Below, in pieces: positions 14,948 through 29,621 of a DNA stretch of 48,021 nucleotides. Source of the stretch: Peterkaempfera griseoplana. GTDB lineage: Bacteria; Actinomycetota; Actinomycetes; Streptomycetales; Streptomycetaceae. How positions within the stretch are numbered: the first letter of the stretch is position 1; each line of letters begins with the position of its first letter. The notes beneath the pieces are model-generated. The model made no database searches and was not told the DNA's origin. It was given only the letters and a program-made list of their open reading frames with translations. The stretch spans positions 1-48,021 of the forward strand of contig NZ_LIQR01000052.1 in NCBI RefSeq assembly GCF_001418575.1. Reading direction: 5' to 3'. A program made the translations under genes and the position numbers.

Positions 14948-15061
14948 TCGGGAACCAGCACGCACCACGCACCGGTGGGATGGCACGGCCGGCTCCGTGT
15001 CCAGCCCACCGCTGTGCCCTCCTGTGCACTTCCGTGTGTATTCAGTGAACGAGGAGCAGCA

Positions 15062-18000
15062 GTGTCACGTCATCTGCGCCGCATACTCGCGGCGGTCGTG
15101 ACCGCGGTCCTGTGCGTGCCCTTGATCGGCGCCGTCGGCGGCACCGCGTGGGCGGGTACGGCGAGATCCGCGGCCGAGCAGTTCCGGGTACTGGTCTTCT
15201 CCAAGACCACCGGTTTCCGGCACGACTCCATCCCGGACGGGATCGCGGCCATCCAGAAGCTGGGCGAGGAGAACGGCTTCGCGGTGGACGCGACCGAGGA
15301 CGCCACCGTCTTCACCGAAGCCGGCCTGGCGAAGTACCAGACGGTGGTCTTCCTCTCCACCACCGGTGACCCGCTGGACCAGCAGTCCGAGAAGGACGCC
15401 TTCCAGTCCTACATCGAGCACGGCGGCGGCTTCGTGGGCATCCACGCCGCGGCCGACTCCGGCTACTCCTGGGCCTGGTACGGCAAGCTGGTCGGCGCCT
15501 ACTTCAAGACCCACCCGGCCATCCAGCAGGCCACGCTGACCGTCGAGGACCCCGCCCACCCGTCGACCAGGGGACTGCCCACCAGGTGGACCCGTACCGA
15601 CGAGTGGTACGACTACCAGAGCAACCCGCGCGGCGGCGTCCACGTCCTCACCTCGCTGGACGAGAAGTCCTACAGCGGCGGCGGCATGGGCTACGACCAC
15701 CCGGACACCTGGTGCCAGAACTACGACGGCGGCCGCTCCTGGTACACCGGCCTCGGCCACACGTCGGAGAGCTGGACCGAGCCGAACTTCCTCCAGCTGG
15801 TCCTGGGCGGGATCAAGACCACGGCCGGGGCCGAACAGGCCGACTGCTCGGCGTCGGCCTCCGCCGGCTTCCAGAAGGTGCCGCTGGACGAGAACACCAG
15901 CAACCCGATGCAGATGCAGGTCGCCCCGGACGGCCGGGTCTTCTACGTGGACCGGCTCGGCGCGGTCGACGTCATCCTGCCGGGCTCCAACCAGGTGGTC
16001 ACCGCAGGCAACGTCAACCCGTTCACCGCCAACGAGAGCGGCGCGCTCGGCATCGCCCTGGACCCGGGCTTCGACACCAACCACTGGGTGTACGTCTTCT
16101 ACTCCCCGCAGGCCAAGTCGGTGGACCAGATCTCCCGCTTCACCCTGAACAGCGACAACACGCTGAACATGGCGAGCGAGAAGGTCGTGCTGGAAGTGCC
16201 GGTGCAGCGGAACACCTGCTGCCACCACGGCGGGTCGATGCTGTTCGACAAGGACGGCAACCTCTGGCTGTCCACCGGTGACAACACCAACCCGTTCGGC
16301 AGTCCCACCAACGCCTACGCCCCGCTGGACTTCCGCGACGGCATGGAGACCCAGGACTCGTCCCGCACCTCCGGCAACACCAACTCGCTCTCGGGCAAGG
16401 TGCTGCGGATCCACCCCCAGGCCGACGGCAGCTACACCGTCCCGGACGGCAACCTCTTCCCGGACGGCACCGCCAAGACCCGGCCCGAGATCTACGCCAT
16501 GGGCTTCCGCAACCCGTTCCGGCTCGGTACCGACCCCAAGACCGGCCTGGTGATCGTCGGCGAGTACGGCCCTGACGCGTCCACCGCCGATCCCAAGCGC
16601 GGTCCGGAGAACACCGTCGAGTGGGACGTCCTCAGCAAGCCGGGCAACTACGGCTGGCCGTTCTGCATCGGCAACAACCAGCCGTACGTCCACTACGACT
16701 ACGCCACGGGCGTCTCCGGCGACGCGTACGACTGCGCCGGCGGCCCGGTCAACGACTCACCGCACAACACCGGCCTGACCCAGCTGCCCAAGCCGGTTCC
16801 CGCCTCGGTCTGGTCGCACTACACCGCCGACCCGGCCTGGCCCGCCGTCGGCGGCGCCGGCGCTCCCATGGCCGGCCCGGTCTACCGCTACGACCCGGAC
16901 CTGAACTCCGGCACCAAGTGGCCGGCCTACTACGACGGCAAGGAGATCGCCGCCGAGTGGAACTCGGGCCGGATGTACACCTTCCAGCTCAGCGACGACC
17001 AGACCTCGGTGCTGCAGATCGATCCGCTGCTGGACGGTATGGGCTTCAAGAAGCCGATGGACATGAAGTTCGGCCCGGACGGCGCCCTCTACGTGATCGA
17101 CTGGGGGTCGGGCTTCGACGGCAACAACCAGGACTCCGGCATCTACCGGGTCGACTACATCCAGGGCAACCGCCCGCCGACTGCCAGGCTCTCGGCCGAC
17201 CGCACCGACGGGCCGGCGCCGCTGACCGTGCACTTCTCCTCGGCGGGCTCGGACGACCCCAACAAGGACGGTGCGCTGACGTACGCGTGGGACTTCGACA
17301 GCGACGGCACCGTCGACTCCACCGAGGCCGACCCCGCGTACACCTACCCGGACGCGGGCAACCGCACGGCGAGTCTGACCGTCACCAACAAGGCCGGGAA
17401 GAGCGCCAGCGCGACCCTCGACATCACCGTCGGCAACAGCACACCGACGATCACCATCGACACCCCCGCCGAGGGCGGCGCCTTCGCCTGGGGCGACAGG
17501 ATCCCCTTCAAGGTGACCGTCACCGACCCGGAGGACGGGCCGGTGGACTGCTCCCAGGTGACCGTCCAGGCCTCGCTGGGCCATGACACCCATGCGCACG
17601 CCCTGGACCAGTTCCACTCCTGCTCGGGCACGGTGCAGACCCCGGTGGACACCGGGCACGGCGCCTTCTCCAACCTGTTCTTCGTCCTGGAGGCCCGGTA
17701 CACCGACCACGGCGGCGCCGGCGGTTCCAAGGCGCTGACCGGCGACAAGTCGATCATCTTCCAGACGCAGGACAAGCAGGCCGAGTACTACACCTCCGCG
17801 AGCGCCGGCGTCACCAGGACCGACACCGCCGACCCCATCGGCGGCAACCAGGACGTCACCGGCATCGACGACGGCTCCACGGTGACCATCGACCCGGTGA
17901 ACCTGACCGGCGTCGACTCGCTGACCTTCCGGGTCGCCGCGCTGGCCGGCGGCACCGTCGAGGCCCACGAGTCCAGCGCCGACGGTCCGCTCGCGGCCAA

Positions 18001-20530
18001 GGTCACCGTGCCGGCGGGGAACGGTTCCTACCGCTACCTCACCGCCCCGGTCACCGACCCGGGCGGCACCCACCCGCTGGTCCTGGTCTTCAAGGGCTCC
18101 AGCGCGGGAGCGAAGAACCTGCTCCGGCTCAACTGGATCCACTTCGGCGGCAAGGGCGTCGCGGAGGGCAACACCCCGCCGTTCGTCCAGGTCGACGCCT
18201 CCCCGCTGACCGGCGACACCCCGCTGAAGGTGGATTTCACCGCGGCGGCCACCGACCCCGAGGGCCAGGCCGTCTCGTACGCCTGGGACTTCGACGGCGA
18301 CGGGAAGACCGACTCCACCGAGGCGAAGCCGAGCCACACCTTCACCGCCCCCGGCACCTGGACGGCCACGGTGACCGCCACCGACCCCGACGGCGCGTCA
18401 GGGACGGCCACCGTCACCGGTCGCACCGACACCCCGCCGGTGGAGTGCCTCGGCACGGCGTCCGACGAGTTCACCGGCGACCAGCTGGACACCGGCCGGT
18501 GGTCGGTGGTCCGCCAGGACCAGAACCTCAAGGTCACCGGCGGCAACCTGGTGATCCCGACCAGCGACACCGACATCTACAGCGCCGGGGGCAACACCCC
18601 GGACATCGTGCTGCAGCCCGCCCCGTCCGGAGCCTGGCAGGCCACCACCAAGCTGACGCTCCCTGCCGACCGCAGCTACCAGCAGGCCGGTCTGGTCCTC
18701 TACGGCGACGACGACAACTACGCCAAGCTGGTCTACGAGGGCCGCGCCACCAACGGCCCGGACGCCGGGCAGAACATCTTCCAGTTCATCCGTGAGGAGA
18801 ACGGCGACCCGCACGAGGTCTCCGCCAGCAACACCGGCGCCCTCGGCGCGGCCTACCCGCAGACCGTCTACCTGCGGATCACCAGCGACGGCAGCAACAT
18901 CACCGCTGCCTACTCGGCCGACGGCAGCACCTTCACCACCATGCCGGAGACCAAGCCGATCGCCGGGATCGGCAACCCGCGGATCGGGCTGGTCTCGCTC
19001 GCCGGCAACGGCACCACGCCGCCGGTCGACGCGGCCTTCGACTGGTTCCACCTCACCCCCGACCCGACCGCCGCGGCCCCCGGACCGAGCGACGAGTTCG
19101 ACGGCGCCACGCTGGACGGCTGCCGCTGGACCCGGGTGGTCCGCCCCGACCTCACCCATATGCGGGTGGCCGACGGCAGTCTGCGGATCGACACCGGCAA
19201 GGGAGACATCTACGGCACGCCCAACAGCGACCCGTCCGGCTTCCTGCTGCAGAAGGCACCCGACACCGACTGGACGATCGAGACCAAGGTCGACGGCAGC
19301 GCCTTCAACCAGCAGTACCACCAGGGCGGCCTGATCGCGTACAAGGACGACGACAACTACGTCAAGCTCGACTACCTCACCGACAACCAGCCCGGCCAGG
19401 CCCTGGTCCGCCGGATCGAGCTGCGCGGCGAGGCCGGCGGCACGGTGCTCGACCCGCAGCCGGGGGCCGGCGACCTGACCCAGGGCGTGTGGTACCTGCG
19501 CCTGGCCAAGCGGGGCGACACCTTCCGCGGCTACTACTCCGCCGACGGCACGACCTGGACCGAGGTCGCCGCAGGCGGTGCGGCGGCCACGGTGAGCAAC
19601 CCGGCGGTGGCCGCGGGCGCCCATGCGGGTCTGTTCGCCTTCGGGGTGAACCAGACCGAGCCCGTCACCGCGAAGTTCGACTGGTTCCACGCCGACTGGA
19701 GCAACGCCTCCGACACCGCCGCACCGGTCACCGAGGCCACCGCCGACCCGGCCGCGCCCGACGGTGACGGCGGCTGGTACACCTCGCCCGTCTCGGTGAC
19801 CCTGGCGGCCACCGACGGCACCGGCGGGTCCGGCGTCGCCGGCACCGAGTACCGGATCGACGACGCCACCGACTGGACCCGCTACACCGGCCCGGTGCGC
19901 CTCACCGACGACGGGGAGCACACCCTCGCCTACCGGTCGACGGACAAGGCCGGGAACGTCGAGCAGGCCGGGTCGGTCACCGTCCGCATCGACGCCACGG
20001 CGCCGAGCGTGCTGCCGACCGGAGTCACCGACGGCACCTCGTACGGCGACTCCACCACCGTCACCCCCGGGGCCGCCGCGGCCGACGCCGGCTCCGGGAT
20101 CGGCAGCACCGTCCTGACGCTGGACGGCAAGGAGGTCGCCGCCGGCACCGCGCTGCCCCTGCTCGGGCTGGACCTGGGGCGGCACGAGCTGGCGGCGGTC
20201 GCCACCGACAAGGCCGGCAACACCACCCGGACCGTGTCCGGCTTCACCGTCACCACCTCGTACCAGGACATGCAGACGGTCATCGACCGGTTCCGCTCCC
20301 AGGGCGACATCGACGCGAAGACCGCCGGCAAGCTCCACGACCGCCTCCAGCGCGCCTCGGACGCGGCCGACCGCAAGCTGGACCACGTCGCGGCCGTGCA
20401 GCTGGAGAACTTCAGGAAGGAGGCAGCAGACCCCGCCGTCGTCGGGAACGCGCAGCTCCGCACGGTACTGGTCCGTGATGCGCGGTACCTGATCGACGCC
20501 CTCACCAAGGCCCCGGGGTCCACCGCCTAG
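15062..20530 (+). CDS. Giant secreted ThuA / PQQ-type dehydrogenase / PKD / lectin-like protein
   Basis: An 1822-residue exported protein starting at GTG with GAGGAG upstream. Order, with rough residues: signal (1-32); ThuA (42-257); glucose/sorbosone dehydrogenase propeller (270-702; NTCCHHGGSMLFDKDG, GFRNPFRLG); PKD (704-793; YAWDFDSDG); an Ig-like segment (794-900); CBM6-like domain (905-1030); second PKD (1039-1120; YAWDFDGDG); two concanavalin-like domains similar to each other (1133-1333, 1343-1547; DEFTGDQLDTGRW and DEFDGATLDGCRW); two Ig-like repeats (1553-1733); and a helical FIMAH-like C terminus (1734-1820; VIDRFRSQGDIDAKTAGKLHD). It has no DUF1080, unlike its relative at 409-4449. 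Carbohydrate-binding and PKD modules suggest action on, or attachment to, a polysaccharide. Confidence 0.9.
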   Translation: MSRHLRRILAAVVTAVLCVPLIGAVGGTAWAGTARSAAEQFRVLVFSKTTGFRHDSIPDGIAAIQKLGEENGFAVDATEDATVFTEAGLAKYQTVVFLSTTGDPLDQQSEKDAFQSYIEHGGGFVGIHAAADSGYSWAWYGKLVGAYFKTHPAIQQATLTVEDPAHPSTRGLPTRWTRTDEWYDYQSNPRGGVHVLTSLDEKSYSGGGMGYDHPDTWCQNYDGGRSWYTGLGHTSESWTEPNFLQLVLGGIKTTAGAEQADCSASASAGFQKVPLDENTSNPMQMQVAPDGRVFYVDRLGAVDVILPGSNQVVTAGNVNPFTANESGALGIALDPGFDTNHWVYVFYSPQAKSVDQISRFTLNSDNTLNMASEKVVLEVPVQRNTCCHHGGSMLFDKDGNLWLSTGDNTNPFGSPTNAYAPLDFRDGMETQDSSRTSGNTNSLSGKVLRIHPQADGSYTVPDGNLFPDGTAKTRPEIYAMGFRNPFRLGTDPKTGLVIVGEYGPDASTADPKRGPENTVEWDVLSKPGNYGWPFCIGNNQPYVHYDYATGVSGDAYDCAGGPVNDSPHNTGLTQLPKPVPASVWSHYTADPAWPAVGGAGAPMAGPVYRYDPDLNSGTKWPAYYDGKEIAAEWNSGRMYTFQLSDDQTSVLQIDPLLDGMGFKKPMDMKFGPDGALYVIDWGSGFDGNNQDSGIYRVDYIQGNRPPTARLSADRTDGPAPLTVHFSSAGSDDPNKDGALTYAWDFDSDGTVDSTEADPAYTYPDAGNRTASLTVTNKAGKSASATLDITVGNSTPTITIDTPAEGGAFAWGDRIPFKVTVTDPEDGPVDCSQVTVQASLGHDTHAHALDQFHSCSGTVQTPVDTGHGAFSNLFFVLEARYTDHGGAGGSKALTGDKSIIFQTQDKQAEYYTSASAGVTRTDTADPIGGNQDVTGIDDGSTVTIDPVNLTGVDSLTFRVAALAGGTVEAHESSADGPLAAKVTVPAGNGSYRYLTAPVTDPGGTHPLVLVFKGSSAGAKNLLRLNWIHFGGKGVAEGNTPPFVQVDASPLTGDTPLKVDFTAAATDPEGQAVSYAWDFDGDGKTDSTEAKPSHTFTAPGTWTATVTATDPDGASGTATVTGRTDTPPVECLGTASDEFTGDQLDTGRWSVVRQDQNLKVTGGNLVIPTSDTDIYSAGGNTPDIVLQPAPSGAWQATTKLTLPADRSYQQAGLVLYGDDDNYAKLVYEGRATNGPDAGQNIFQFIREENGDPHEVSASNTGALGAAYPQTVYLRITSDGSNITAAYSADGSTFTTMPETKPIAGIGNPRIGLVSLAGNGTTPPVDAAFDWFHLTPDPTAAAPGPSDEFDGATLDGCRWTRVVRPDLTHMRVADGSLRIDTGKGDIYGTPNSDPSGFLLQKAPDTDWTIETKVDGSAFNQQYHQGGLIAYKDDDNYVKLDYLTDNQPGQALVRRIELRGEAGGTVLDPQPGAGDLTQGVWYLRLAKRGDTFRGYYSADGTTWTEVAAGGAAATVSNPAVAAGAHAGLFAFGVNQTEPVTAKFDWFHADWSNASDTAAPVTEATADPAAPDGDGGWYTSPVSVTLAATDGTGGSGVAGTEYRIDDATDWTRYTGPVRLTDDGEHTLAYRSTDKAGNVEQAGSVTVRIDATAPSVLPTGVTDGTSYGDSTTVTPGAAAADAGSGIGSTVLTLDGKEVAAGTALPLLGLDLGRHELAAVATDKAGNTTRTVSGFTVTTSYQDMQTVIDRFRSQGDIDAKTAGKLHDRLQRASDAADRKLDHVAAVQLENFRKEAADPAVVGNAQLRTVLVRDARYLIDALTKAPGSTA

Positions 20531-20660: not shown

Positions 20661-21380
20661 GTGGCGCCACCGACGGCCACCCCCAGCCGCACCACCACCC
20701 CTCGGCGCGCACCCGTCGACCTCGACACCGTCACCCGTGGCTCCTTCCGCAAGGGCCTGCTGGTCGGGGCGGCGGCCGTGCTCGTCCTCGCGCTGGCGAC
20801 GGCCCTGCTCGTCGCGTTCCACCCGGCACACCCGGCCGACCGCACCAAGGAACTCGCCGACCGGATCCGCGCGCAGGACGCCGCCCGCAACAAGCAGCAG
20901 GTCAAGGAACTCACCGACCAGGCCAGGAAGCTGGCCGCCACGTTGGGGCCGGTCCTGCAGCAGATGGAGCACGCCCTGCCGCACGACGGCGGCACGCCCC
21001 GTCCCGCCGACACGGCCGAGACCGCCCGGTGGAAGAAGGTCACCTCCCAGGCCGTGACCGAACTGGCCCATCCCCCGTCCGGGGACACCGGCTACAACAT
21101 CGCCCGAGCCGACCTCGCCGCCGCCGTCCGCGCCCTCGACGGCGCTGTGGACACCTACCGGCTGCTCCGGGACGCCCCCGCCTCCCTGGCGCACAGCCTC
21201 CGCGGCAGCGCCGCCGCCCAGCGCGACCAGGGCGTCGACACCTGGTCCATCGGCGCCACCGCGCTCGACGTGGCCGGCCTCGACGCCGGGTTGGGCCACC
21301 AGCACGTCTTCCTCGCGGTCACCCCGGACGGCCAGGCCCTGAGCCCGGACGACCAGCCGGAGGGGAGCGAGGCCAGGTGA
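20661..21380 (+). CDS. Membrane-anchored protein of unknown function
   Basis: A 239-residue protein I do not recognise. A basic Pro/Thr-rich N terminus is followed by one membrane segment (about 32-54, GLLVGAAAVLVLALATALLV). Then comes an extracellular, strongly charged, probably helical or coiled part (KELADRIRAQDAARNKQQ) and a loose C-terminal region. Start is GTG with AAGGACGGA upstream. It sits between the giant ThuA-PQQ gene (130 bases) and the inositol-phosphate synthase gene (103 bases), all in one direction. It may tether or organise the secreted enzymes; this is inference from position and topology only. Confidence 0.7.
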   Translation: MAPPTATPSRTTTPRRAPVDLDTVTRGSFRKGLLVGAAAVLVLALATALLVAFHPAHPADRTKELADRIRAQDAARNKQQVKELTDQARKLAATLGPVLQQMEHALPHDGGTPRPADTAETARWKKVTSQAVTELAHPPSGDTGYNIARADLAAAVRALDGAVDTYRLLRDAPASLAHSLRGSAAAQRDQGVDTWSIGATALDVAGLDAGLGHQHVFLAVTPDGQALSPDDQPEGSEAR

Positions 21381-21483: not shown

Positions 21484-22650
21484 ATGTCGGAGCAGAGCAG
21501 CCGAACCGGGATCTGGATGGTGGGCGGTCGCGGATCGGTGGCCACCACGGTGGTCGCCGGCGCGGCCGCGCTCCGGGCCGGACTGGCCGCGCCCATCGGA
21601 TGCGTCACCGAGCAGCCGGACTTCCCCCACGCAGGCCTGCCCGCCGTCGCCGACCTGGTCTTCGGCGGCCACGACACGGCCTGCACCCCGCTGCCCAAGC
21701 GGGCCGAGCAGCTGGCCGCCGCCGGTGTGCTGCCCCACGGACTGCCCGCCCTGGTCCACGACGACCTGGCCGCCGCCGACGCCGAACTGCGCCCCGCACC
21801 GCTGCCCGGACCGGACCTGACCCAGGCCGCGGCCGTCGAGGCGATCCGGGCCGACATCACCGCCTTCCGCGAGCGCCACGACCTGGCCCGCGTCGTGGTG
21901 GTCAACGTGGCGTCCACCGAGCCCGTCGCGGCCGCCGACCCCGCGCACGCCTCCGCCGAGGCCCTGAGCGCGGCGCTCGCCGCGGGCCGGGAGGTGCTGC
22001 CGGCGAGTTCGGCGTACGCCCTCGCCGCCGTGCTGGCCGGCTGCGCCCACGTCGACTTCACCCCCTCCGCCGGGATGCGCGTCCCCGCCCTGGAGGAACT
22101 GGCCGAGCGGGCCGGACTGCCGTACGCGGGCAACGACGGCAAGACGGGGGAGACCCTGCTCAAGGCCGCCCTCGCGCCGATGTTCAGGACCCGCGGCCTG
22201 CGGGTGCGCGCCTGGTCCGGCACCAACCTGCTGGGCGGCGGCGACGGTGAGACCCTCGCCGATCCCGCCGCGATGGCCAGCAAGACCGGGTCCAAGCAGC
22301 GCGTGCTCGCCGAGACCCTCGGCCGCCCCGTGGAGGGCCAGGTCCACATCGACTACGTGCCCTCCCTCGGGGACTGGAAGACCGCCTGGGACCACATCGC
22401 CTTCGAGGGCTTCCTCGGCGTCCGGATGAACCTCCAGTTCACCTGGGCGGGCTGCGACTCCGCGCTGGCCGCACCCCTGGTGCTGGACCTGGTCCGGCTC
22501 ACGGCCCGCGCCCAGGAGCGGGGCCTGCGCGGGCCGCTGGGCGAACTGGGCTTCTTCTTCAAGGACCCGCTGAGCGCCGGAACACACGACCTGATGCGCC
22601 AGTACGAGGCCCTGTGCGCCTTCGCGGCCCGGCTGGGGGAGCCGCGGTGA
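21484..22650 (+). CDS. ino1: Inositol-3-phosphate synthase family protein
   Basis: A 388-residue member of the myo-inositol-1/3-phosphate synthase family, which uses NAD to turn glucose 6-phosphate into inositol phosphate. Visible: N-terminal Rossmann loop GIWMVGGRGSVATTVVAG; the active-site stretch YAGNDGKTGETLLK; and SGTNLLGGGDGETL. Length is near the bacterial norm. ATG 21484 has GGAGG about seven bases upstream. Its stop overlaps the next start, placing it at the head of the Ebo-type block. There it occupies the place where Ebo clusters elsewhere carry a different sugar-phosphate cyclase, so its product may feed a cyclitol-based pathway rather than general inositol supply. Confidence 0.85.
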   Translation: MSEQSSRTGIWMVGGRGSVATTVVAGAAALRAGLAAPIGCVTEQPDFPHAGLPAVADLVFGGHDTACTPLPKRAEQLAAAGVLPHGLPALVHDDLAAADAELRPAPLPGPDLTQAAAVEAIRADITAFRERHDLARVVVVNVASTEPVAAADPAHASAEALSAALAAGREVLPASSAYALAAVLAGCAHVDFTPSAGMRVPALEELAERAGLPYAGNDGKTGETLLKAALAPMFRTRGLRVRAWSGTNLLGGGDGETLADPAAMASKTGSKQRVLAETLGRPVEGQVHIDYVPSLGDWKTAWDHIAFEGFLGVRMNLQFTWAGCDSALAAPLVLDLVRLTARAQERGLRGPLGELGFFFKDPLSAGTHDLMRQYEALCAFAARLGEPR

Positions 22651-23567
22651 CCCGCCGCCGCACGCCCCGCTCCGGACGGCTCCGCGCCCTCGCCCAACTG
22701 GTTCGGGCCCCGGCCGCGCTGACCGTGCCCGGCGACGTCCTGGCGGGGGCCGCCGCCGCAGGCCGCGCCACCGACGCGTCCCTGGCGTGCCTCGCCACCT
22801 CCTCGGTCTGCCTGTACTGGGCCGGGATGGCGCTCAACGACTGGGCCGACCGCGAACTGGACGCCGTGGAACGCCCCGAGCGGCCGATCCCCTCCGGCCG
22901 GATCCCGGCCCCGGTGGCCCTCGGCGTCGCCACGGCCCTGACCGCCGCCTCACTCGGACTGGCGGCCGCCGCGGGCCGCCGGGCGCTGGCGGTCGCCGTC
23001 CCGCTCGCCGCCACGGTCTGGATGTACGACCTGCGGGCCAAGTCCGGTCCGGCCGGTCCGGCGGTGATGGCCGCCGCCCGCGGTCTCGACGTGCTGCTGG
23101 GGGCGGGTGCGGGCCGGCTGCGGCCCGCCCTGCCCGCCGCCGCCACCGTGGCCGGGCACACCCTGGCCGTCACCGCGCTCAGCCGGGCCGAGGTCACCGG
23201 CGCCGACCCGTGGCTGCCCCGGGCGACGCTCGCGGCCACCGCAGCCGTCACCGCCGCGGCGGCGGCGCTCCCCGCGCTCCCGACGGGCACCGCCCTGCCC
23301 GCCGCCGCGGCCCGGTGCGGTACCGCCCGCCTGGCCGCCCTCGGCGGGCTCGCCGTCTACGGCGCCACGGCGGGCCGCGCCCAGAGCAGGGCCGCTGCCG
23401 ACCCCTCGGCGGGCAACGTCCGGCGGGCCGTCGGCGCGGGCATCCTCGGCCTGATCCCCCTTCAGGCCGCGCTCACCGCCCAAGCCGGCGCGCTGCGGGC
23501 CGCGCTCCCGGTAGCCGCTGCCTTCCCCCTCGCCCGGGCCCTGTCCAGGAGGGTGTCCCCGACATGA
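22647..23567 (+). CDS. eboC: UbiA-like prenyltransferase, EboC-like
   Basis: A 306-residue very hydrophobic membrane protein, rich in Ala and Leu. It has the UbiA Asp-rich motif NDWADRELDAVERPERP and a weak second motif at YDLRAKSG. The latter has only one Asp where UbiA enzymes usually show more, so catalysis may differ. GTG start overlaps the preceding stop by three bases. UbiA proteins join an isoprenoid chain to a soluble acceptor at the membrane. In Ebo clusters the EboC member is thought to modify a small precursor that is then moved across the membrane. Here the acceptor could be a cyclitol made by the gene before it. Confidence 0.85.
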   Translation: MTRRRTPRSGRLRALAQLVRAPAALTVPGDVLAGAAAAGRATDASLACLATSSVCLYWAGMALNDWADRELDAVERPERPIPSGRIPAPVALGVATALTAASLGLAAAAGRRALAVAVPLAATVWMYDLRAKSGPAGPAVMAAARGLDVLLGAGAGRLRPALPAAATVAGHTLAVTALSRAEVTGADPWLPRATLAATAAVTAAAAALPALPTGTALPAAAARCGTARLAALGGLAVYGATAGRAQSRAAADPSAGNVRRAVGAGILGLIPLQAALTAQAGALRAALPVAAAFPLARALSRRVSPT

Positions 23568-24451
23568 CCGCACTCCCACCCCGCACCGGCGGCGCCGGCA
23601 CCGGGGCCGTGCCCGACCTGCGCTTCGGCTTCGGCACCAACGGCTTCGCCAACCACCGGCTGGACGACGCGCTCGCCGTCATCGCCGACCTCGGCTACGA
23701 CGGCGTGGCGCTCACCCTCGACCACGCGCACCTCGACCCGTACGCGCCCCACCTCGCCACCCGGACCGCCGCCCTCGCCCGCCGACTGGAGCGGCTGGGC
23801 CTGACCGCGGTGGTCGAGACCGGCGCCCGCTACCTGCTCGACCCCTGGCAGAAGCACGAACCCACCCTGCTCTCCGACGACGGCCGGCACCGCCGGCTGG
23901 ACTTTCTGCGCCGCGCGGTGGCCGTGGGCGCCGGCCTCGGCGCGCAGGCCGTCTCCTTCTGGGCCGGCGTACGGCCCGCCGCGGTGGACCCGCAGACCGC
24001 CTGGGACCGGCTGGTCGACGGCTGCGCCGAGGCCGTCGCGGCCGCCGAGCGGTCCGGGGTCGTCCTCGGCTTCGAACCCGAGCCCGGCATGCTCGTGGAG
24101 GACCTCGACGGGTACCGGCAGCTCGCCGCCGCGCTCGGCGACCCGGCGGCGTTCGGCCTCACCCTCGACATCGGCCACTGCCGCTGCCTGGAGCCGCACC
24201 CGGTAGCCGACTGCGTGCGCCTGGCCGGGGACCGGCTGGTCAACGTGCAGATCGACGACATGCGCCGAGGCACCCACGAACACCTGGAGTTCGGCACCGG
24301 CGAGATCGACTTCCCGCCGGTGCTCGCCGCCCTCGACGAGGTCGGCTACCGCGGGCTGGTCGCCGTCGAACTGCCGCGGCACAGCCATGACGCGCCCGGA
24401 GTGGCCCGGCGCTCCCTGGACTTCCTGCGCAGTTCGTGCAAAGCGTCGTGA
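23564..24451 (+). CDS. Xylose-isomerase-like TIM-barrel protein (sugar phosphate isomerase/epimerase)
   Basis: A 295-residue PF01261-type TIM barrel. Metal-ligand positions of the family are visible: Glu in GFEPEPGM, Asp and His in LTLDIGHCRC, and a late Glu in GLVAVELPRHSHD. Family members isomerise or epimerise sugars and cyclitols or cleave 3-keto glycosides. ATG overlaps the preceding UbiA stop by four bases, with AGGAGGG upstream inside that gene. It is an extra member of the Ebo-type operon and the first of three TIM-barrel proteins here. Confidence 0.88.
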   Translation: MTALPPRTGGAGTGAVPDLRFGFGTNGFANHRLDDALAVIADLGYDGVALTLDHAHLDPYAPHLATRTAALARRLERLGLTAVVETGARYLLDPWQKHEPTLLSDDGRHRRLDFLRRAVAVGAGLGAQAVSFWAGVRPAAVDPQTAWDRLVDGCAEAVAAAERSGVVLGFEPEPGMLVEDLDGYRQLAAALGDPAAFGLTLDIGHCRCLEPHPVADCVRLAGDRLVNVQIDDMRRGTHEHLEFGTGEIDFPPVLAALDEVGYRGLVAVELPRHSHDAPGVARRSLDFLRSSCKAS

Positions 24452-24463
24452 GGAGGAGACGGT

Positions 24464-25117
24464 ATGACACCTGACGCACTCAGAACCGCTCTGGCCGGAC
24501 GGACGACCGAGGAGGGCGAGCGGTGGCTCGACGCCGCGTGCACCGCGGTGGCCGCCGACCCCGCGGCCGTCCGCGCCCTCTTCCCGGCGGCGGGGCGCCG
24601 GTGCGGCCGCGGCCCGCTGCACCTCGCCGAGCCGTACGGCTGGACGGTCGACGACGCGGTCCGGGCCCTGCTGCTGGCCGCACTGCCGCTCACCGGCACC
24701 GCACTGCACACCGAGCTCACCGAGCTCTACCGCACCGGCGACGCGGCCGAACGCCGCGCCGTGCTGCGCGCCCTGCCCCTGCTGCCCGTCGGCGACGACG
24801 CGCTGCCGCTGGTCCACGACGCGCTGCGCACCAACGACACCCGGCTGGTCGCGGCGGCCCTCGGCGACTACGCCACCCACCACCTGGACGCCGCCGCCTA
24901 CCGCCAGGGCGTGCTCAAGTGCGTCTTCACCGGCATCCCGCTCGCCGCGCTGCCCGGGCTGCCCGACCGCGCGGACGCCGAACTCGCCCGCATGATGTCC
25001 GCGTTCGCCGCCGAGCGGACCGCGGCCGGCCGTCCGGTGCCCGCCGACATCCAGCCGGTCCTGGCGCGCTTCCCCGAGATCCCCGTCCCCACCGCGACCG
25101 CCCGCCGGGAGGCGTGA
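24464..25117 (+). CDS. eboA: EboA-like protein
   Basis: A 217-residue soluble, mostly helical protein of the EboA type. The match is by overall pattern (AEPYGWTVDDAVRALLLAA, ALPLLPVGDDALPLVHDALRTND, then LKCVFTGIPLAALPGL) and by its place before a TatD-like gene. No catalytic motif is evident; repeats of Ala/Leu helices resemble HEAT-like packing. Start ATG follows a strong GGAGGAG. In cyanobacteria the ebo genes are needed for moving a scytonemin precursor to the periplasm; the role of EboA itself is unknown. Confidence 0.8.
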   Translation: MTPDALRTALAGRTTEEGERWLDAACTAVAADPAAVRALFPAAGRRCGRGPLHLAEPYGWTVDDAVRALLLAALPLTGTALHTELTELYRTGDAAERRAVLRALPLLPVGDDALPLVHDALRTNDTRLVAAALGDYATHHLDAAAYRQGVLKCVFTGIPLAALPGLPDRADAELARMMSAFAAERTAAGRPVPADIQPVLARFPEIPVPTATARREA

Positions 25118-25983
25118 TGCGCATCTTCGACCCGCACATCCACATGACCTCGCGCACCACCGACGACTACGAGGCGATGCACGCCGCCGGCGTCCGCGCC
25201 CTGGTCGAGCCGGCGTTCTGGCTGGGCCAGCCCCGCACCTCCGCGGCCAGCTTCCTGGACTACTTCGACGCCCTCATCGGCTGGGAGCCGTTCCGCGCCG
25301 CGCAGTTCGGCATCCGGCACCACTGCACCATCGCACTCAACCCCAAGGAGGCCAACGACCCGCGCTGCACCGAGGTGCTCCGGCACCTGCCCCGGTACCT
25401 GGCCAAGGACGGCGTGGTCGCCGTGGGCGAGATCGGCTACGACTCGATGACGCCCGCCGAGGACCACGCCTTCGCCGCGCAGCTGCAGCTCGCCGTCGTC
25501 CACGAACTGCCGGCACTGGTGCACAGCCCGCACCGCGACAAGGCCGCCGGTGTCGACCGCACCCTGGCCGTCGTCCGGGAGTCGGGCATCGCTCCCGAAC
25601 GGGTCGTCGTCGACCACCTCAACGAGGTGACGGTCAAGCAGGTCGCCGACTCCGGCTGCTGGATGGGCTTCTCCATCTACCCCGACACCAAGATGGACGA
25701 GCACCGCATGGTCGCCGTGCTGCGGGAGTACGGCACCGAGCGGATCCTGGTCAACTCGGCCGCCGACTGGGGCCGGAGCGACCCGCTGAAGACCCGGAGG
25801 ACCGCCGACGCCATGCTGGCGGCCGGCTTCTCGGCCGACGACGTCGACCAGGTGCTCTGGCGCAACCCGGTCGCCTTCTACGGCCAGAGCGGCAGGCTGG
25901 AGCTCGACGACGTCGAGGCGCCCGGCACCGGCGCCACCTTCGAGGGCAACTCCGTGCTGCGCGGCGCCCGGGCGGAGGTGTAG
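25117..25983 (+). CDS. eboB: TatD-like metal-dependent hydrolase, EboB-like
   Basis: A 288-residue amidohydrolase-fold protein. Metal ligands are apparent: FDPHIH (H7, H9), Glu in VGEIGYDSM, His in HSPHRDK, His in VDHLNE and Asp in NSAADWG. ATG overlaps the EboA stop (TGATG). TatD relatives are nucleases or ester hydrolases, but the EboB branch forms its own group whose substrate is unknown. The C-terminal 25 residues (EGNSVLRGARAEV) are typical of this branch rather than DNA-acting TatD. Confidence 0.85.
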   Translation: MRIFDPHIHMTSRTTDDYEAMHAAGVRALVEPAFWLGQPRTSAASFLDYFDALIGWEPFRAAQFGIRHHCTIALNPKEANDPRCTEVLRHLPRYLAKDGVVAVGEIGYDSMTPAEDHAFAAQLQLAVVHELPALVHSPHRDKAAGVDRTLAVVRESGIAPERVVVDHLNEVTVKQVADSGCWMGFSIYPDTKMDEHRMVAVLREYGTERILVNSAADWGRSDPLKTRRTADAMLAAGFSADDVDQVLWRNPVAFYGQSGRLELDDVEAPGTGATFEGNSVLRGARAEV

Positions 25984-25985
25984 CC

Positions 25986-27161
25986 GTGCGGCTGCTCCAC
26001 CCCGACGGCACGCCCGTCCACGTCGCCTACTGCACCAACGTCCACCCGGCCGAGGACCTCGACGGCGTCCTCATCCAGCTCGCCCGGTACGCCGAACCCG
26101 TCCGCGAGCGGCTCGGCGCACCCGTCCTCGGCCTGGGCCTGTGGCTCGCCCGCGACGCCGCGGCCGCCCTCGCCGCCGACCCCGGCGCGGTCGCCGGGCT
26201 CCGCACCGAGCTGGCCGCCCGCGGCCTGGAGGTGGTCACCCTCAACGGCTTCCCCTACCGCGGCTTCCACGCCCCCGTGGTCAAACACGCCGTCTACCGG
26301 CCCGACTGGACCTCCCACGACCGGCTGGACTACACCCTCGACCTCGCCCGGGTCCTGGCCGCGCTGCTGCCCGACGACGCCGCCCACGGCAGCATCTCCA
26401 CTGTGCCGCTGGGCTGGCGCGACCCCTGGGACCGGGAGCAGCAGGAGGCGGCCGCCCGCACCCTCGACGCGCTGGCCCGCGAGCTGGCCGAACTGGAGGC
26501 CCGGACCGGCCGTACGGTCCGGGTCGCCCTCGAACCCGAGCCCGGGTGCGTCGTCGAGACCACCGCCGAGGCGGCCCGGCACCTCGCCGCGGTCGACACC
26601 GACCGCATCGGCGTCTGCCTGGACGCCTGCCACCTCGCCACCGGCTTCGAGGACCCCGCCGCCGCCCTCGACCGGCTGGACGCCGCCGGGCTCGCCGTCG
26701 TCAAGACCCAGGCGTCCTGCGCCCTGCAGGCCGACGACCCCGCCGATCCCGCCACCCGGAAGGCACTGGCCGCCTTCGCCGAGCCGCGCTTCCTCCACCA
26801 GGTACGCGAGTACGGCGGCCCCGGGACGCGGCCGGCCGCCGTCGACGACCTGGACGCCGCCCTGGCCGGCGCACTGCCCGGCCGCGCCCCCTGGCGGATC
26901 CACTTCCACGTCCCCCTGCACGCCGACCCCGAACCGCCGCTGACCACCACCCGGACCCAGCTCGAGGCCACCCTCGCCGCCCTGCTCGGCGGGGACACCG
27001 CCCGCACCGCCCATGTGGAGGCCGAGACCTACACCTGGGGAGTGCTGCCGGCGGACCGCCGGCCCGACGGACCGGAGGCCCTCGCCGACGGCATCGCCGC
27101 CGAACTCGGCTGGATCCGCGACCACCTGCTCTCCCTCGGCCTGAAGGAGCCCGCCGTATGA
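25986..27161 (+). CDS. eboE: EboE-like TIM-barrel protein
   Basis: A 391-residue protein of the EboE metabolite-traffic family, a PF01261-like barrel. The opening VHVAYCTNVHPAEDLDGVL is characteristic, and VALEPEPGCVVETT and GVCLDACHLATGFEDP carry the expected metal-binding Glu, Asp and His. GTG start lies two bases after the previous stop. The stop overlaps the EboF-like start. In studied ebo operons it acts with the other Ebo proteins in export of a small molecule; the chemistry is not settled. Confidence 0.88.
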   Translation: MRLLHPDGTPVHVAYCTNVHPAEDLDGVLIQLARYAEPVRERLGAPVLGLGLWLARDAAAALAADPGAVAGLRTELAARGLEVVTLNGFPYRGFHAPVVKHAVYRPDWTSHDRLDYTLDLARVLAALLPDDAAHGSISTVPLGWRDPWDREQQEAAARTLDALARELAELEARTGRTVRVALEPEPGCVVETTAEAARHLAAVDTDRIGVCLDACHLATGFEDPAAALDRLDAAGLAVVKTQASCALQADDPADPATRKALAAFAEPRFLHQVREYGGPGTRPAAVDDLDAALAGALPGRAPWRIHFHVPLHADPEPPLTTTRTQLEATLAALLGGDTARTAHVEAETYTWGVLPADRRPDGPEALADGIAAELGWIRDHLLSLGLKEPAV

Positions 27162-28546
27162 GCGCCGCCCCGCTGCTGGTCCTCGACGTGGTCGGGATGA
27201 CCCCCCGGCTGCTCGCCCACATGCCGCGCCTGCGGGCGCTGGGGGAGCAGGGCTTCGCCTCCCGGCTGGACACTTCGTTCCCCGCCGTCACCTGCACCGT
27301 CCAGTCGACCTTCCTCACCGGGCAGCCCGCCGCCGGCCACGGCATCGTCGGCAACGGCTGGTACTTCCGCGAACTCGGCGAGGTGCTGCTGTGGCGGCAG
27401 CACAACCGGCTCGTCCGGGGCGACAAGCTGTGGGACGCCGCGCGGCGCGCCCAGCCCGGCTACCGGGTCGCCAACATCTGCTGGTGGTACGCCATGGGCG
27501 CCGACGTCGACCTCACCGTCACCCCGCGGCCGGTGTACTACTCCGACGGCCGCAAGGAGCCCGACTGCTACACCTGGCCGCCGGAGCTGCACGACGAGCT
27601 CACCGGCAAGTTCGGCACCTTCCCGCTGTTCCAGTACTGGGGGCCGACCGCCTCCATCGCCTCCTCCCGGTGGATCGCCGACGCCGCCCGGCACGTGGTC
27701 GCCACCCACGCCCCGGACCTCACCCTGGTCTACGTCCCCCACCTCGACTACGACCTGCAGCGCTTCGGCCCCGACCACCCGCGGGCCGCCGCCGCGGCCG
27801 CCCAGGTCGATCTGGCGCTCGGCCCGCTGCTGGACGAGGCCGCCGCCCGGGGCATCACCGTGGTCGCGCTCTCCGAGTACGGCATCACCAACGTCTCCCG
27901 CCCGGTCGACGTCAACCGGGCGCTGCGCCGCGCCGGACTGCTCGAGGTCCACACCCAGGACGGGATGGAGTACCTCGACCCGTGGACCTCGCGCGCGTTC
28001 GCCGTCGCCGACCACCAGGTCGCCCACGTCTACGTCCGCGACCCGGCCGACACCGACCGCGTCCGGCAGCTCCTGGCCGGCCTGGACGGGGTGGCCGAGG
28101 TACTCGACGAGGAGGGCAAGAAGGCCCACGGCATCGACCACCCCCGCGCCGGGGAGCTGGTCGCCGTCGCCGACCCGGACGCCTGGTTCACCTACTACTA
28201 CTGGCTCGACGACGACCGGGCCCCGGACTTCGCCCGACTGGTGGAGATCCACCGCAAGCCCGGCTACGATCCCGCCGAGCTGTTCATGGACCCCGACGAC
28301 CCCGGGGTGAAGCTGCGGGCCGCGGCCGCCCTCGCCCGGAAGAAGCTGGGCATGCGCTACCGGATGAGCGTCGTCCCGCTGGACCCGTCGCCGGTGCGCG
28401 GCAGCCACGGCCGGCTGCCGGACGACCCGGCGGACGGGCCCGTACTGCTCTGCTCCAGTCCCGAGCAGGCCCGCGACCACTACGACGCGACCGAGGTCAA
28501 GGACCTGCTGCTGCGCCTCGCCGGCCTCGCCCCCGACCCCCACTGA
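27158..28546 (+). CDS. eboF: Alkaline-phosphatase-superfamily phosphodiesterase, EboF-like
   Basis: A 462-residue member of the nucleotide pyrophosphatase/phosphodiesterase branch of the alkaline phosphatase superfamily. Seen: LDVVGMTPRLL (first metal Asp), FPAVTCTVQSTFLTGQP (nucleophile Thr), HLDYDLQRFGPDH (Asp and His) and DHQVAHVYV. There is no evident signal peptide, so it is probably cytoplasmic. ATG overlaps the EboE stop. It is the last gene of the overlapping Ebo-type run, and likely cleaves a phosphate or phosphodiester from the pathway intermediate. Confidence 0.88.
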   Translation: MSAAPLLVLDVVGMTPRLLAHMPRLRALGEQGFASRLDTSFPAVTCTVQSTFLTGQPAAGHGIVGNGWYFRELGEVLLWRQHNRLVRGDKLWDAARRAQPGYRVANICWWYAMGADVDLTVTPRPVYYSDGRKEPDCYTWPPELHDELTGKFGTFPLFQYWGPTASIASSRWIADAARHVVATHAPDLTLVYVPHLDYDLQRFGPDHPRAAAAAAQVDLALGPLLDEAAARGITVVALSEYGITNVSRPVDVNRALRRAGLLEVHTQDGMEYLDPWTSRAFAVADHQVAHVYVRDPADTDRVRQLLAGLDGVAEVLDEEGKKAHGIDHPRAGELVAVADPDAWFTYYYWLDDDRAPDFARLVEIHRKPGYDPAELFMDPDDPGVKLRAAAALARKKLGMRYRMSVVPLDPSPVRGSHGRLPDDPADGPVLLCSSPEQARDHYDATEVKDLLLRLAGLAPDPH

Positions 28547-28595: not shown

Positions 28596-28613
28596 CATCC
28601 GATGGAGGAAACC

Positions 28614-29621
28614 ATGCCGCGTCCGGTCACCCTGTTCACCGGCCAATGGGCCGACCTGCCCTTCGAGGAGGTCTGCCGGCTCGCCTCGCAGTGGGGGTAC
28701 GACGGGCTGGAGATCGCCTGCTGGGGGGACCACTTCGAGGTCGACAAGGCATTGAACGACGACGACTACGTCCCGCGCCGCCGCGCTCTGCTGGAGAAGT
28801 ACAACCTGCGCTGCTGGACGCTCTCCTGCCACCTCACCGGCCAGGCCGTCTGCGACCACCCCATCGACGAACGCCACCGGGGCATCCTCCCGGCCCGGAT
28901 CTGGGGCGACGGTGAGGCCGAGGGCGTGCGGCAGCGCGCCGCACAGGAGATCAAGGACACCGCGCGGGCCGCGGCCAAGTTCGGGGTGCAGACCGTGGTC
29001 GGCTTCACCGGCTCCTCGATCTGGCACACGGTGGCGATGTTCCCGCCGGTGCCGCCGGAGATGATCGAACGCGGATACCAGGACTTCGCCGACCGGTGGA
29101 ACCCGATCCTCGACGTCTTCGACGAGGTCGGGGTGCGCTTCGCCCACGAGGTCCACCCCTCGGAGATCGCCTACGACTACTGGTCGACGGTGCGGACCCT
29201 GGAGGCCATCGGCCACCGCGAGGCCTTCGGCCTCAACTTCGATCCCTCCCACTTCGTCTGGCAGGACCTCGACCCGGTCGGTTTCCTGTCGGACTTCCGG
29301 GACCGCATCTACCACGTCGACTGCAAGGAGTCCGTCAAGCAGCTCAACGGGCGCAACGGCCGGCTCGGCTCCCACCTGCCGTGGGGCGACCCGCGCCGCG
29401 GGTGGGACTTCGTCTCCACCGGTCACGGGGACGTCCCCTGGGAGGCGTGCTTCCGGATGCTGAACTCCATCGGCTACGACGGCCCCATCTCCGTGGAGTG
29501 GGAGGACGCCGGCATGGACCGGCTGCACGGTGCGCCGGACGCCCTGGCCTTCATCCGCCGGCTCACCGCGATCGAGCCCCCGGCCCAGTCCTTCGACGCG
29601 GCCTTCTCCTCCGGCGACTGA
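28614..29621 (+). CDS. Sugar phosphate isomerase/epimerase (TIM barrel)
   Basis: A 335-residue PF01261 protein. Family metal ligands are visible: Glu in [15 protein letters not shown], Asp and His in [10 protein letters not shown], His in YHVDCKE, and Glu in [12 protein letters not shown] chose ATG 28614 over 28602 because the GGAGGAA ribosome site lies between them. It follows the EboF-like gene by 67 bases and closes the locus before a hairpin. Close relatives act with Gfo/Idh/MocA enzymes on inosose or 3-keto sugars, which fits the dehydrogenase at 8875. Confidence 0.9.

What the first reader, a model, noticed from the sequence alone, without database searches (positions are those of the whole stretch)
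21484..28546. Ebo-type operon in which an inositol-phosphate synthase replaces the usual sugar-phosphate cyclase
Sequence shows seven nearly overlapping genes: inositol-3-phosphate synthase homologue, UbiA-like, TIM barrel, EboA, TatD-like, EboE, alkaline-phosphatase-like. Known ebo operons carry EboD, a dehydroquinate-synthase-like sugar-phosphate cyclase, and are linked to export of a scytonemin precursor in cyanobacteria. No EboD is present here, and another NAD-using cyclase that makes a cyclitol phosphate leads the operon. If the swap is real, the shared theme of Ebo clusters would be a cyclitol head group that is prenylated, dephosphorylated and exported.
Basis: partly seen in the sequence, partly recalled or inferred. 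Interest (0 to 1): 0.75.

Follow-up and report, generated by a model that had tools for sequence, protein, structure and literature searches.

The report
Ebo operon with inositol-phosphate cyclase
Many actinobacteria, and a few other microbes, carry a version of a widespread but poorly understood metabolite pathway (Ebo) whose usual ring-forming enzyme is exchanged for one that looks like an inositol-phosphate maker, which suggests a concrete, testable starting compound for the pathway.

Summary
Seven tightly packed genes at 21484-28546 encode a myo-inositol-phosphate synthase (Ino1), an SCO3242-type UbiA prenyltransferase, a TIM barrel (TIM1), EboA, a TatD-like EboB, EboE and an EboF phosphodiesterase.

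The variant is not a one-off. Of 96 Ebo clusters examined in the window's phylum, 88 have Ino1, one has EboD, none has both; 81 show the full set in the same order. None of 80 Ebo loci from other phyla, a sample centred on an EboD-type query, has Ino1. Elsewhere I found Ino1 in three haloarchaeal plasmid clusters (Ebo-like) and in Gemmatirosa, whose EboB and EboG are of the EboD-type lineage, so the cyclase has been exchanged more than once. TIM1 accompanies Ino1, not EboD.

Best reading: Ino1 plus TIM1 stand in for EboD and feed a cyclitol to the UbiA prenyltransferase. The enzyme roles are inferred; no product is known, and a shared dephosphorylation step is not supported. New variant of a known kind.

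The parts
21484..22650 (+). Ino1-type myo-inositol-1-phosphate synthase, 388 aa, in the place of EboD
   Evidence: PF07994/PF01658; nearest solved sequence A. fulgidus mIPS 1u1i, 231 bits; model TM 0.90 to it; separated 100/100 from the clade of the housekeeping copy
22647..23567 (+). SCO3242-family UbiA prenyltransferase (EboC counterpart), 306 aa, GTG start
   Evidence: NF045897 372 bits over cut-off 260; EboC model 137.5 under cut-off 250; Asp-rich stretch NDWADRELD visible in the translation
23564..24451 (+). TIM1, xylose-isomerase-like TIM barrel, 295 aa, accompanies Ino1 and not EboD
   Evidence: PF01261 139 bits; in 82 of 87 Ino1-type clusters of the phylum and 0 of 71 EboD-type clusters elsewhere
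24464..25117 (+). EboA-domain protein, 217 aa, all-helical predicted fold
   Evidence: NF035938 176.8 bits; model pLDDT 95, no PDB match at E<=0.001, weak helical-repeat matches
25117..25983 (+). EboB, TatD-like metal-dependent hydrolase, 288 aa
   Evidence: PF01026; profile match in Ebo clusters across phyla; nearest solved sequence 3guw AF_1765, 84 bits
25986..27161 (+). EboE, TIM barrel, 391 aa, GTG start
   Evidence: NF035939 445.9 bits over cut-off 250
27158..28546 (+). EboF, type I phosphodiesterase/nucleotide pyrophosphatase-like, 462 aa
   Evidence: PF01663 222 bits; 55.9% identical to EboF of the EboD-type cluster L028
28602..29621 (+). tim2, second TIM barrel 55 bases after eboF; related to a solved 2-hydroxy-3-keto-glucal hydratase
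   Evidence: in the stretch of 37 of 88 Ino1-type loci, 0 of 75 EboD-type; PDB 2zds 626 bits and 8ro4 143 bits; occurs with the SCO3242 family in the window's taxonomic family, 60 of 72 against 21 of 128 genomes
20661..21380 (+). 239-aa protein with an N-terminal hydrophobic stretch (seen by eye), directly upstream
   Evidence: no family; relatives 30-107 bases upstream of the cluster in 9 of 88 Ino1-type loci, window included; 0 of 75 EboD-type
14975..20530 (+). large ThuA / glucose-sorbosone dehydrogenase / PKD / CBM6 protein, frequent neighbour
   Evidence: Pfam; its first 760 aa match in the stretch of 48 of 88 Ino1-type loci, 5 of 75 EboD-type

Best explanation
This is an Ebo operon of a distinct, widespread 'Ino1 type'. 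Ino1 converts glucose 6-phosphate to myo-inositol 1-phosphate (inferred from family and intact active site). TIM1 then alters that cyclitol, by epimerisation, isomerisation or dehydration (inferred). The SCO3242-type UbiA enzyme attaches a prenyl chain, either to a hydroxyl of the cyclitol or by its phosphate (inferred). EboB, EboE and EboF, which are shared with EboD-type operons, act on a part of the molecule common to both types (for example a linkage, the prenyl diphosphate or a passenger), with EboA (or EboG) as a helical scaffold. The cyclitol is thus an exchangeable head group on a common membrane-bound pathway. Shown here: the gene content, the exclusion between the two cyclases in what was examined, repeated exchange, and conserved catalytic residues. 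Not shown: any reaction, the order of steps, or the product.
For: Seven-gene order kept in 81 of 87 clusters. Cyclases exclusive: in 96 clusters of the phylum 88 Ino1, 1 EboD, 0 both; 0 of 80 loci of other phyla with Ino1, 71 of 74 clusters there with EboD. EboD profile over 80 genomes: one hit at 603 bits (G381, a row of the profile), all others at most 167. Residues of the A. fulgidus K367A, K278A and N255A mutants, and D225, D261, K274, K306, D332, are kept in 86 of 86 ebo Ino1 rows and 4 of 4 Gemmatirosa/haloarchaeal rows, as in all 45 other Ino1 rows. All four pairings of cyclase with accessory exist: EboA+EboD, EboG+EboD, EboA+Ino1, EboG+Ino1 (Gemmatirosa). Gemmatirosa EboB is 76% identical to an EboD-type EboB, and one Ino1 clade is rejected for EboB+EboF+UbiA (p-AU 1e-7) and, with the haloarchaea set aside, for EboB alone (1e-42). 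UbiA alone splits by cyclase type with one change. TIM1 also lies by an Ino1 in two stretches without Ebo genes (L305, L306).
Against: No activity or product is known. The assayed EboC relative farnesylates quinoline-type aromatics in vitro; only aromatic acceptors were tried (PMC9235831). The UbiA split by cyclase rests on weak support (76; 92 for Gemmatirosa with actinobacteria), and Gemmatirosa UbiA is a long branch, 31-37% identical to its best relatives. EboF does not reject one Ino1 clade (p-AU 0.42). Ebo Ino1s of actinobacteria hold together only weakly in the Ino1 tree (43/46). The catalytic residues checked are kept throughout the family, so they speak for an active cyclase, not for this role. 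Some clusters have no cyclase: L025 and L166 (second clusters), L200, Haladaptatus (no Ino1 on its plasmid). Four Ino1-type clusters (L154, L156, L175, L180) lack TIM1. The haloarchaeal clusters have no EboA or EboE match, so they are Ebo-like at most. The flank comparisons set actinobacteria against other phyla and are confounded by relatedness.
Confidence: 0.5

Rival explanations
1. The Ino1 is only an inositol supplier for ordinary needs (phosphatidylinositol, mycothiol) that happens to sit beside Ebo genes; it does not take part in the Ebo pathway.
For: Inositol is a general metabolite in actinomycetes (recalled); in two sampled genomes (G268, G318) the ebo-type gene is the only PF01658 match, so there it may also serve general needs.
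Against: 15 of 17 examined genomes with an ebo Ino1, the window's included, have a further Ino1 elsewhere, and 14 of 17 non-ebo copies in the tree form a clade set apart by 100/100 (the other three lie among Bacteroidota- and Chloroflexota-type enzymes); first position in the operon with a 4-base overlap; exclusion with EboD; the same combination in Gemmatirosa.
Confidence: 0.12
2. Ino1 and EboD are not equivalents: the Ebo core (A, B, C, E, F) is a general prenyl-carrier or export module, and each cyclase serves a different, unrelated cargo or regulatory need.
For: In Nostoc the ebo genes act in export of scytonemin precursors (PMC6282210, passages); clusters without a cyclase exist (L025, L166, L200); an assayed EboC relative accepts aromatic substrates.
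Against: One or the other cyclase is present in 160 of 170 clusters counted (88+1 of 96, 71 of 74), which is hard to explain if it were dispensable; UbiA type tracks cyclase type, weakly supported.
Confidence: 0.25
3. The Ino1 homologue has changed its product: it cyclises another sugar phosphate (for instance sedoheptulose 7-phosphate) or makes a cyclitol other than myo-inositol 1-phosphate, converging on the EboD product.
For: Ino1-fold enzymes with other products exist (Ari2, 'five-membered-cyclitol-phosphate synthase', 6k96); TIM1 could complete a conversion.
Against: All eight checked catalytic residues are kept in 86 of 86 rows; nearest structures are true mIPS with TM 0.90 against 0.65 for Ari2.
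Confidence: 0.13

Closest known systems
ebo/EDB cluster (eboA-F) of cyanobacteria, Bacteroidota and others
   Same: EboA domain, EboB, EboE, EboF and an EboC-like UbiA enzyme in one operon
   Different: no EboD; Ino1 first in the operon; extra TIM1; UbiA is of the SCO3242 family and misses the EboC cut-off
SCO3242-SCO3243 pair in the CDA region of Streptomyces coelicolor
   Same: SCO3243 is listed as myo-inositol phosphate synthase and SCO3242 as putative transferase; NF045897 bears the name SCO3242
   Different: given there only as CDA-cluster genes in an expression table (passages); I did not fetch the S. coelicolor locus, so the rest of its operon is not tested
Archaeal/eukaryotic-type myo-inositol-1-phosphate synthase (A. 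fulgidus 1u1i)
   Same: fold TM 0.90, 36% identity, catalytic residues kept
   Different: housed in an Ebo operon
Haloarchaeal plasmid clusters (Halocatena, Halobaculum, Natronococcus)
   Same: Ino1, phosphodiesterase, TatD, TIM barrel and UbiA together, no EboD match
   Different: no EboA or EboE match; another TIM barrel beside UbiA

Membership tests
ebo cluster | EboA-domain protein | tested here: met
   NF035938 176.8 bits, cut-off 50; the EboA family model NF035937 is under its cut-off (88 of 320)
ebo cluster | EboE | tested here: met
   NF035939 445.9 bits, cut-off 250
ebo cluster | EboB (TatD-like) and EboF (type I phosphodiesterase) orthologues | tested here: met
   40% and 56% identity to EboB and EboF of the EboD-type cluster L028; one profile finds both types
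ebo cluster | EboC prenyltransferase | tested here: inconclusive
   EboC model 137.5 bits, cut-off 250; related model SCO3242 372 bits, cut-off 260
ebo cluster | EboD sugar-phosphate cyclase | tested here: not met
   no EboD in the window's contig or genome; best 149 bits against 482-577 for five independent EboDs with a like profile
ebo cluster | role in moving a metabolite to the periplasm | not testable with these tools
   shown for Nostoc (PMC6282210 passages)
myo-inositol-1-phosphate synthase | both Pfam domains and mIPS fold | tested here: met
   model TM 0.90 to 1u1i
myo-inositol-1-phosphate synthase | catalytic lysines, aspartates and Asn255 (A. fulgidus numbering) | tested here: met
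   window D218, N248, D254, K267, K271, K299, D325, K360; that D225, D261, K274, K306 and D332 are catalytic is recalled, the K278A, K367A and N255A mutants are titles
myo-inositol-1-phosphate synthase | enzyme activity on glucose 6-phosphate | not testable with these tools
   needs an assay
mycothiol-type housekeeping INO1 | TIGR03450 cut-off and clustering with the genome's housekeeping copy | tested here: not met
   54.8 bits, cut-off 638; separated 100/100 in the tree

The most novel reading that the evidence does not exclude
The Ebo system is a modular pathway for membrane-bound, prenylated cyclitols in which the ring-former is a plug-in: EboD in one lineage, Ino1 plus TIM1 in another, exchanged between backgrounds (Gemmatirosa) and present in bacteria and haloarchaea. 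Ino1 may even be the older solution, since the midpoint of the backbone tree falls inside the Ino1 types. The products would be a new class of prenyl-inositol lipids that carry or export other metabolites.
Probability: 0.3. Interest if true: 0.85.

Novelty: new variant of a known kind. Interest (0 to 1): 0.68.

Why it matters
What the Ebo pathway makes has been open since it was named in 2016 (PMC5133447), and the substrate of EboD is only guessed. In the Ino1 type the first enzyme belongs to a family with a well-known reaction, so a defined candidate acceptor (myo-inositol 1-phosphate) can be handed to the prenyltransferase at once. The variant is also common: EboE matches occur in 98 of 394 sampled genomes of the window's class, and 88 of the 96 clusters examined in the phylum have Ino1; it occurs in Streptomyces, in which genetics is easy. 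The natural exchange of cyclases suggests a direct complementation test in Nostoc.

Tried and rejected
Considered and rejected: chance juxtaposition (order kept in 81 of 87 clusters); housekeeping Ino1; a hidden EboD elsewhere in the genome; degenerate Ino1 (all checked residues kept). A first Ino1 tree was discarded because several rows were wrong-frame ORFs; rebuilt with profile-chosen ORFs. Exchange of UbiA together with the cyclase is suggestive only (weak support). EboF does not resolve where Gemmatirosa belongs (p-AU 0.42). A general link to ScyD/ScyE proteins or multicopper oxidases, suggested by one plasmid, was not borne out: 3 of 88 and 0 of 88 Ino1-type loci. A structure search with EboA gave no match at E<=0.001. 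An Rfam scan of the window found nothing. Ebo-level Ino1 was sought in the phyla of Herpetosiphon, an Acidobacteria MAG and Pontibacter: best 246, 281 and 316 bits in 151, 199 and 198 genomes, against 408-447 for the Gemmatirosa and haloarchaeal ones with the same profile. Twelve such places were fetched: apart from TIM1 in L305 and L306 none showed another Ebo gene; in L310 even the Ino1 was missed, probably because my ORF filter drops frames with runs of N.

Limits of the counts: the 80 loci of other phyla are the best 80 of at least 585 and were ranked by likeness to an EboD-type EboE, so they favour EboD types. Five half-length EboE-like places were not fetched. Sixteen fetched loci of the phylum (five full-length, eleven half-length or broken EboE-like) show no other Ebo gene and are outside the 96. 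The EboD search covered 80 of the 105 genomes with an EboE match. In the backbone trees Haladaptatus (L281) is labelled Ino1-type by its kin although its plasmid has no Ino1. Only the plasmid of Gemmatirosa was searched, not its chromosome. The tim2 test is not corrected for relatedness. The search tool names neither the window's organism nor its phylum; that it is an actinobacterium of the Streptomyces family is inferred from its nearest matches.
Full report
What is there. The window is one whole contig (C468) of an 8.24 Mb draft genome. Seven same-strand genes from 21484 to 28546 overlap by up to 4 bases or lie at most 12 bases apart. Family scans give: inositol-phosphate synthase (PF07994, PF01658), SCO3242-family prenyltransferase, a xylose-isomerase-like TIM barrel (here TIM1), EboA domain, TatD-like hydrolase, EboE, and a type I phosphodiesterase. 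The EboC model itself stays below its cut-off (137.5 of 250), whereas the related model SCO3242 is passed (372 of 260).

(a) EboD elsewhere: a profile of 18 EboD proteins was run over 80 genomes of the phylum with EboE, the window's own included. One genome, G381, gave 603 bits; its EboD is itself a row of the profile. Every other best score was at most 167 bits and covers mostly the middle of the model, as expected of AroB; one genome of 82% completeness (G318) gave no match; the own genome gave 149 bits. Five EboDs from plasmids, not used in any profile, scored 482-577 with a like profile, so a real EboD would hardly have been missed. (b) Housekeeping Ino1: the own genome has a second PF01658 gene on contig C349. 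In the careful tree of 81 rows the window protein lies with other ebo Ino1s on the side of the haloarchaeal, Bacteroidota and Acidobacteria enzymes, and the own second copy lies in another clade, 100/100. Of 17 non-ebo copies from the sampled genomes 14 are in that second clade; three (L134, L136, L138) are with Chloroflexota-type enzymes, apart from the ebo rows. The ebo rows of the phylum hold together only weakly (43/46). The nearest solved sequence is the Archaeoglobus fulgidus enzyme (231 bits; Mycobacterium tuberculosis 52 bits), and the predicted model superposes on it with TM 0.90.

How widespread. EboE (NF035939) is found in 19 of 396 genomes of the phylum and 98 of 394 of the class, the own genome counted in both; 105 genomes in all. 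I fetched 111 stretches around such matches and added the window. Ninety-six hold a cluster (EboE plus at least two of UbiA, EboA, EboB, EboF). Profile search finds Ino1 in 87 of them (in L170 only a piece, beside runs of N) and tblastn in one more (L153), EboD in one (L028), both in none. The remaining seven are two second clusters in genomes whose other cluster has Ino1 (L025, L166), three cut by a contig end (L174, L205, L206), one degraded (L042) and one without a cyclase within reach (L200). Eighty-one of the 87 have all seven genes in the window's order. In contrast, of 80 loci from other phyla 74 hold a cluster, 71 of these have EboD, and none of the 80 has Ino1 or a strong TIM1. That sample was ranked by likeness to an EboD-type protein and so favours EboD types. 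PF01658 genes occur in 13 of the 39 such genomes searched, but not in the cluster stretches.

Outside the phylum. Protein searches of plasmid records led to Gemmatirosa kalamazoonensis plasmid 2 (L268): eboE, eboG, eboB, eboF, ubiA, ino1, tim1, no EboD match in the 18.7 kb read. They also led to haloarchaeal plasmids in which Ino1, phosphodiesterase, TatD, a TIM1-like barrel and UbiA stand together: Halocatena salina, Halobaculum salinum and Natronococcus sp. CG52; Haladaptatus pallidirubidus has the same without Ino1 on that plasmid. The haloarchaeal clusters show no EboA or EboE match. Five proteobacterial and Deinococcus plasmids examined alongside all had an EboD; three Streptomyces plasmids had the seven-gene Ino1 type as annotated by NCBI.

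A natural exchange. On a tree of EboB, EboF and UbiA joined, the Ino1 label needs two changes, and one Ino1 clade is rejected (p-AU 1e-7). The cause is Gemmatirosa: its EboB is 76% identical to that of an EboD-type Thermomicrobiales cluster (44% to the best actinobacterial one), and it has EboG, the alternative to EboA first described in PMC5133447 (passages). An EboG profile finds 10 of 205 loci searched: eight with EboD, one without a cyclase in reach (L067), and Gemmatirosa. So EboA+EboD, EboG+EboD, EboA+Ino1 and EboG+Ino1 all exist. UbiA alone splits by cyclase type with a single change, but support is weak (76, and 92 for Gemmatirosa with actinobacteria) and the Gemmatirosa branch is long; EboF alone leaves its place open (p-AU 0.42). 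The direction of change cannot be told: the root is not inferred, and the midpoint used for drawing lies between the haloarchaeal and all other clusters, so Ino1 could be the older state.

TIM1 and neighbours. TIM1 is in 82 of 87 Ino1 clusters of the phylum and in 0 of 71 EboD clusters elsewhere; in L165 tblastn finds it although the profile count missed it, which leaves four without. It also lies near an Ino1 in two Bacteroidota genomes without other Ebo genes (L306 directly behind, L305 about 5 kb away). This ties TIM1 to the Ino1 product more than to the Ebo core. A second barrel, tim2 (28602-29621), is in the stretch of 37 of 88 Ino1-type loci and 0 of 75 EboD-type, 28-70 bases behind the cluster in at least twelve; a ThuA/sugar-dehydrogenase protein like 14975-20530 is near 48 of 88 against 5 of 75. 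These contrasts set one phylum against others. Within the window's taxonomic family tim2 occurs in 60 of 72 genomes with a strong SCO3242-family match (one of them under the cut-off) and 21 of 128 others, and within 10 kb of it in 42 of 49 genomes compared; relatedness was not corrected for. Its nearest named solved relative is a 2-hydroxy-3-keto-glucal hydratase.

How it may work. Shown by sequence: the mIPS active site is intact. Positions changed in the A. fulgidus mutants K367A, K278A and N255A, and five further ones recalled as catalytic, are identical in 86 of 86 ebo Ino1s, and also in the 49 other Ino1s aligned. Inferred: Ino1 makes myo-inositol 1-phosphate, TIM1 changes it, UbiA prenylates it, and EboB, E and F do what they also do in EboD-type operons. 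A dephosphorylation of the cyclitol as a common step is unlikely, because EboD-like cyclases release the phosphate themselves (PMC5133447 passages), while EboF is well conserved across both types. The best experimental datum I found on an EboC relative, farnesylation of quinolines by Ubi-297, used 14 aromatic acceptors only (PMC9235831, section 7), so it neither supports nor excludes a cyclitol acceptor.

What is known. I read passages of PMC5133447, PMC6282210, PMC9235831 (section 7) and PMC3610822. PMC5133447 noted actinobacterial EboA fused to a xylose-isomerase-like domain, but the word inositol does not occur in its main text, nor in that of PMC6282210 or PMC9235831. PMC3610822 lists SCO3242 and SCO3243 (myo-inositol phosphate synthase) as CDA-cluster genes. 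Seven searches of the held open-access library listed no paper that by its title and abstract treats an Ino1-type Ebo cluster; most subscription papers and bioRxiv preprints are not held there. NCBI's annotation already names the separate genes.

Verdict. [quoted passage not shown] The chemistry proposed is plausible, not shown.

Noticed in passing
L272 (Roseomonas plasmid p546-2) and L305 (Bacteroidota genome G1493): An archaeal-type Ino1 stands near Gfo/Idh/MocA, metallo-beta-lactamase-fold and YcaO genes (in L305 also TIM1, a glycosyltransferase and a PIG-L deacetylase), without Ebo genes: possibly another inositol-based biosynthetic cluster.
   Followed up: partly
L306, 8744-10841: Ino1 followed directly by TIM1 (304 bits) in a Bacteroidota genome, with no Ebo gene in 18.5 kb.
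   Followed up: partly
L025 (G128) and L166 (G505): Two genomes of the window's family carry a second six-gene Ebo cluster that lacks ino1 while their other cluster has it.
   Followed up: partly
L232-L241: A half-length EboE-like TIM barrel (profile positions 1-242) in genomes of family f89, without other Ebo genes in the fetched stretch.
   Followed up: no
L028, 12674-13759: Behind the one EboD-type cluster of the phylum lies an ORF that reads like a type II isopentenyl-diphosphate isomerase (recognised by eye, not scanned), which would fit a prenyl substrate.
   Followed up: no
L286, 2817-4016: A ScyD/ScyE family protein (252.9 bits, cut-off 80) lies directly upstream of an Ino1-type Ebo cluster on a Streptomyces plasmid; a relative was found in only 3 of 88 Ino1-type loci.
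   Followed up: yes
window 31018-41892: A 3624-aa ORF with RHS-like repeats downstream of the operon, seen by eye only.
   Followed up: no
G405 and G418 (same genus as the window): Neither of the two sampled congeners has an SCO3242-family match over the cut-off, so the operon is patchy within the genus.
   Followed up: no
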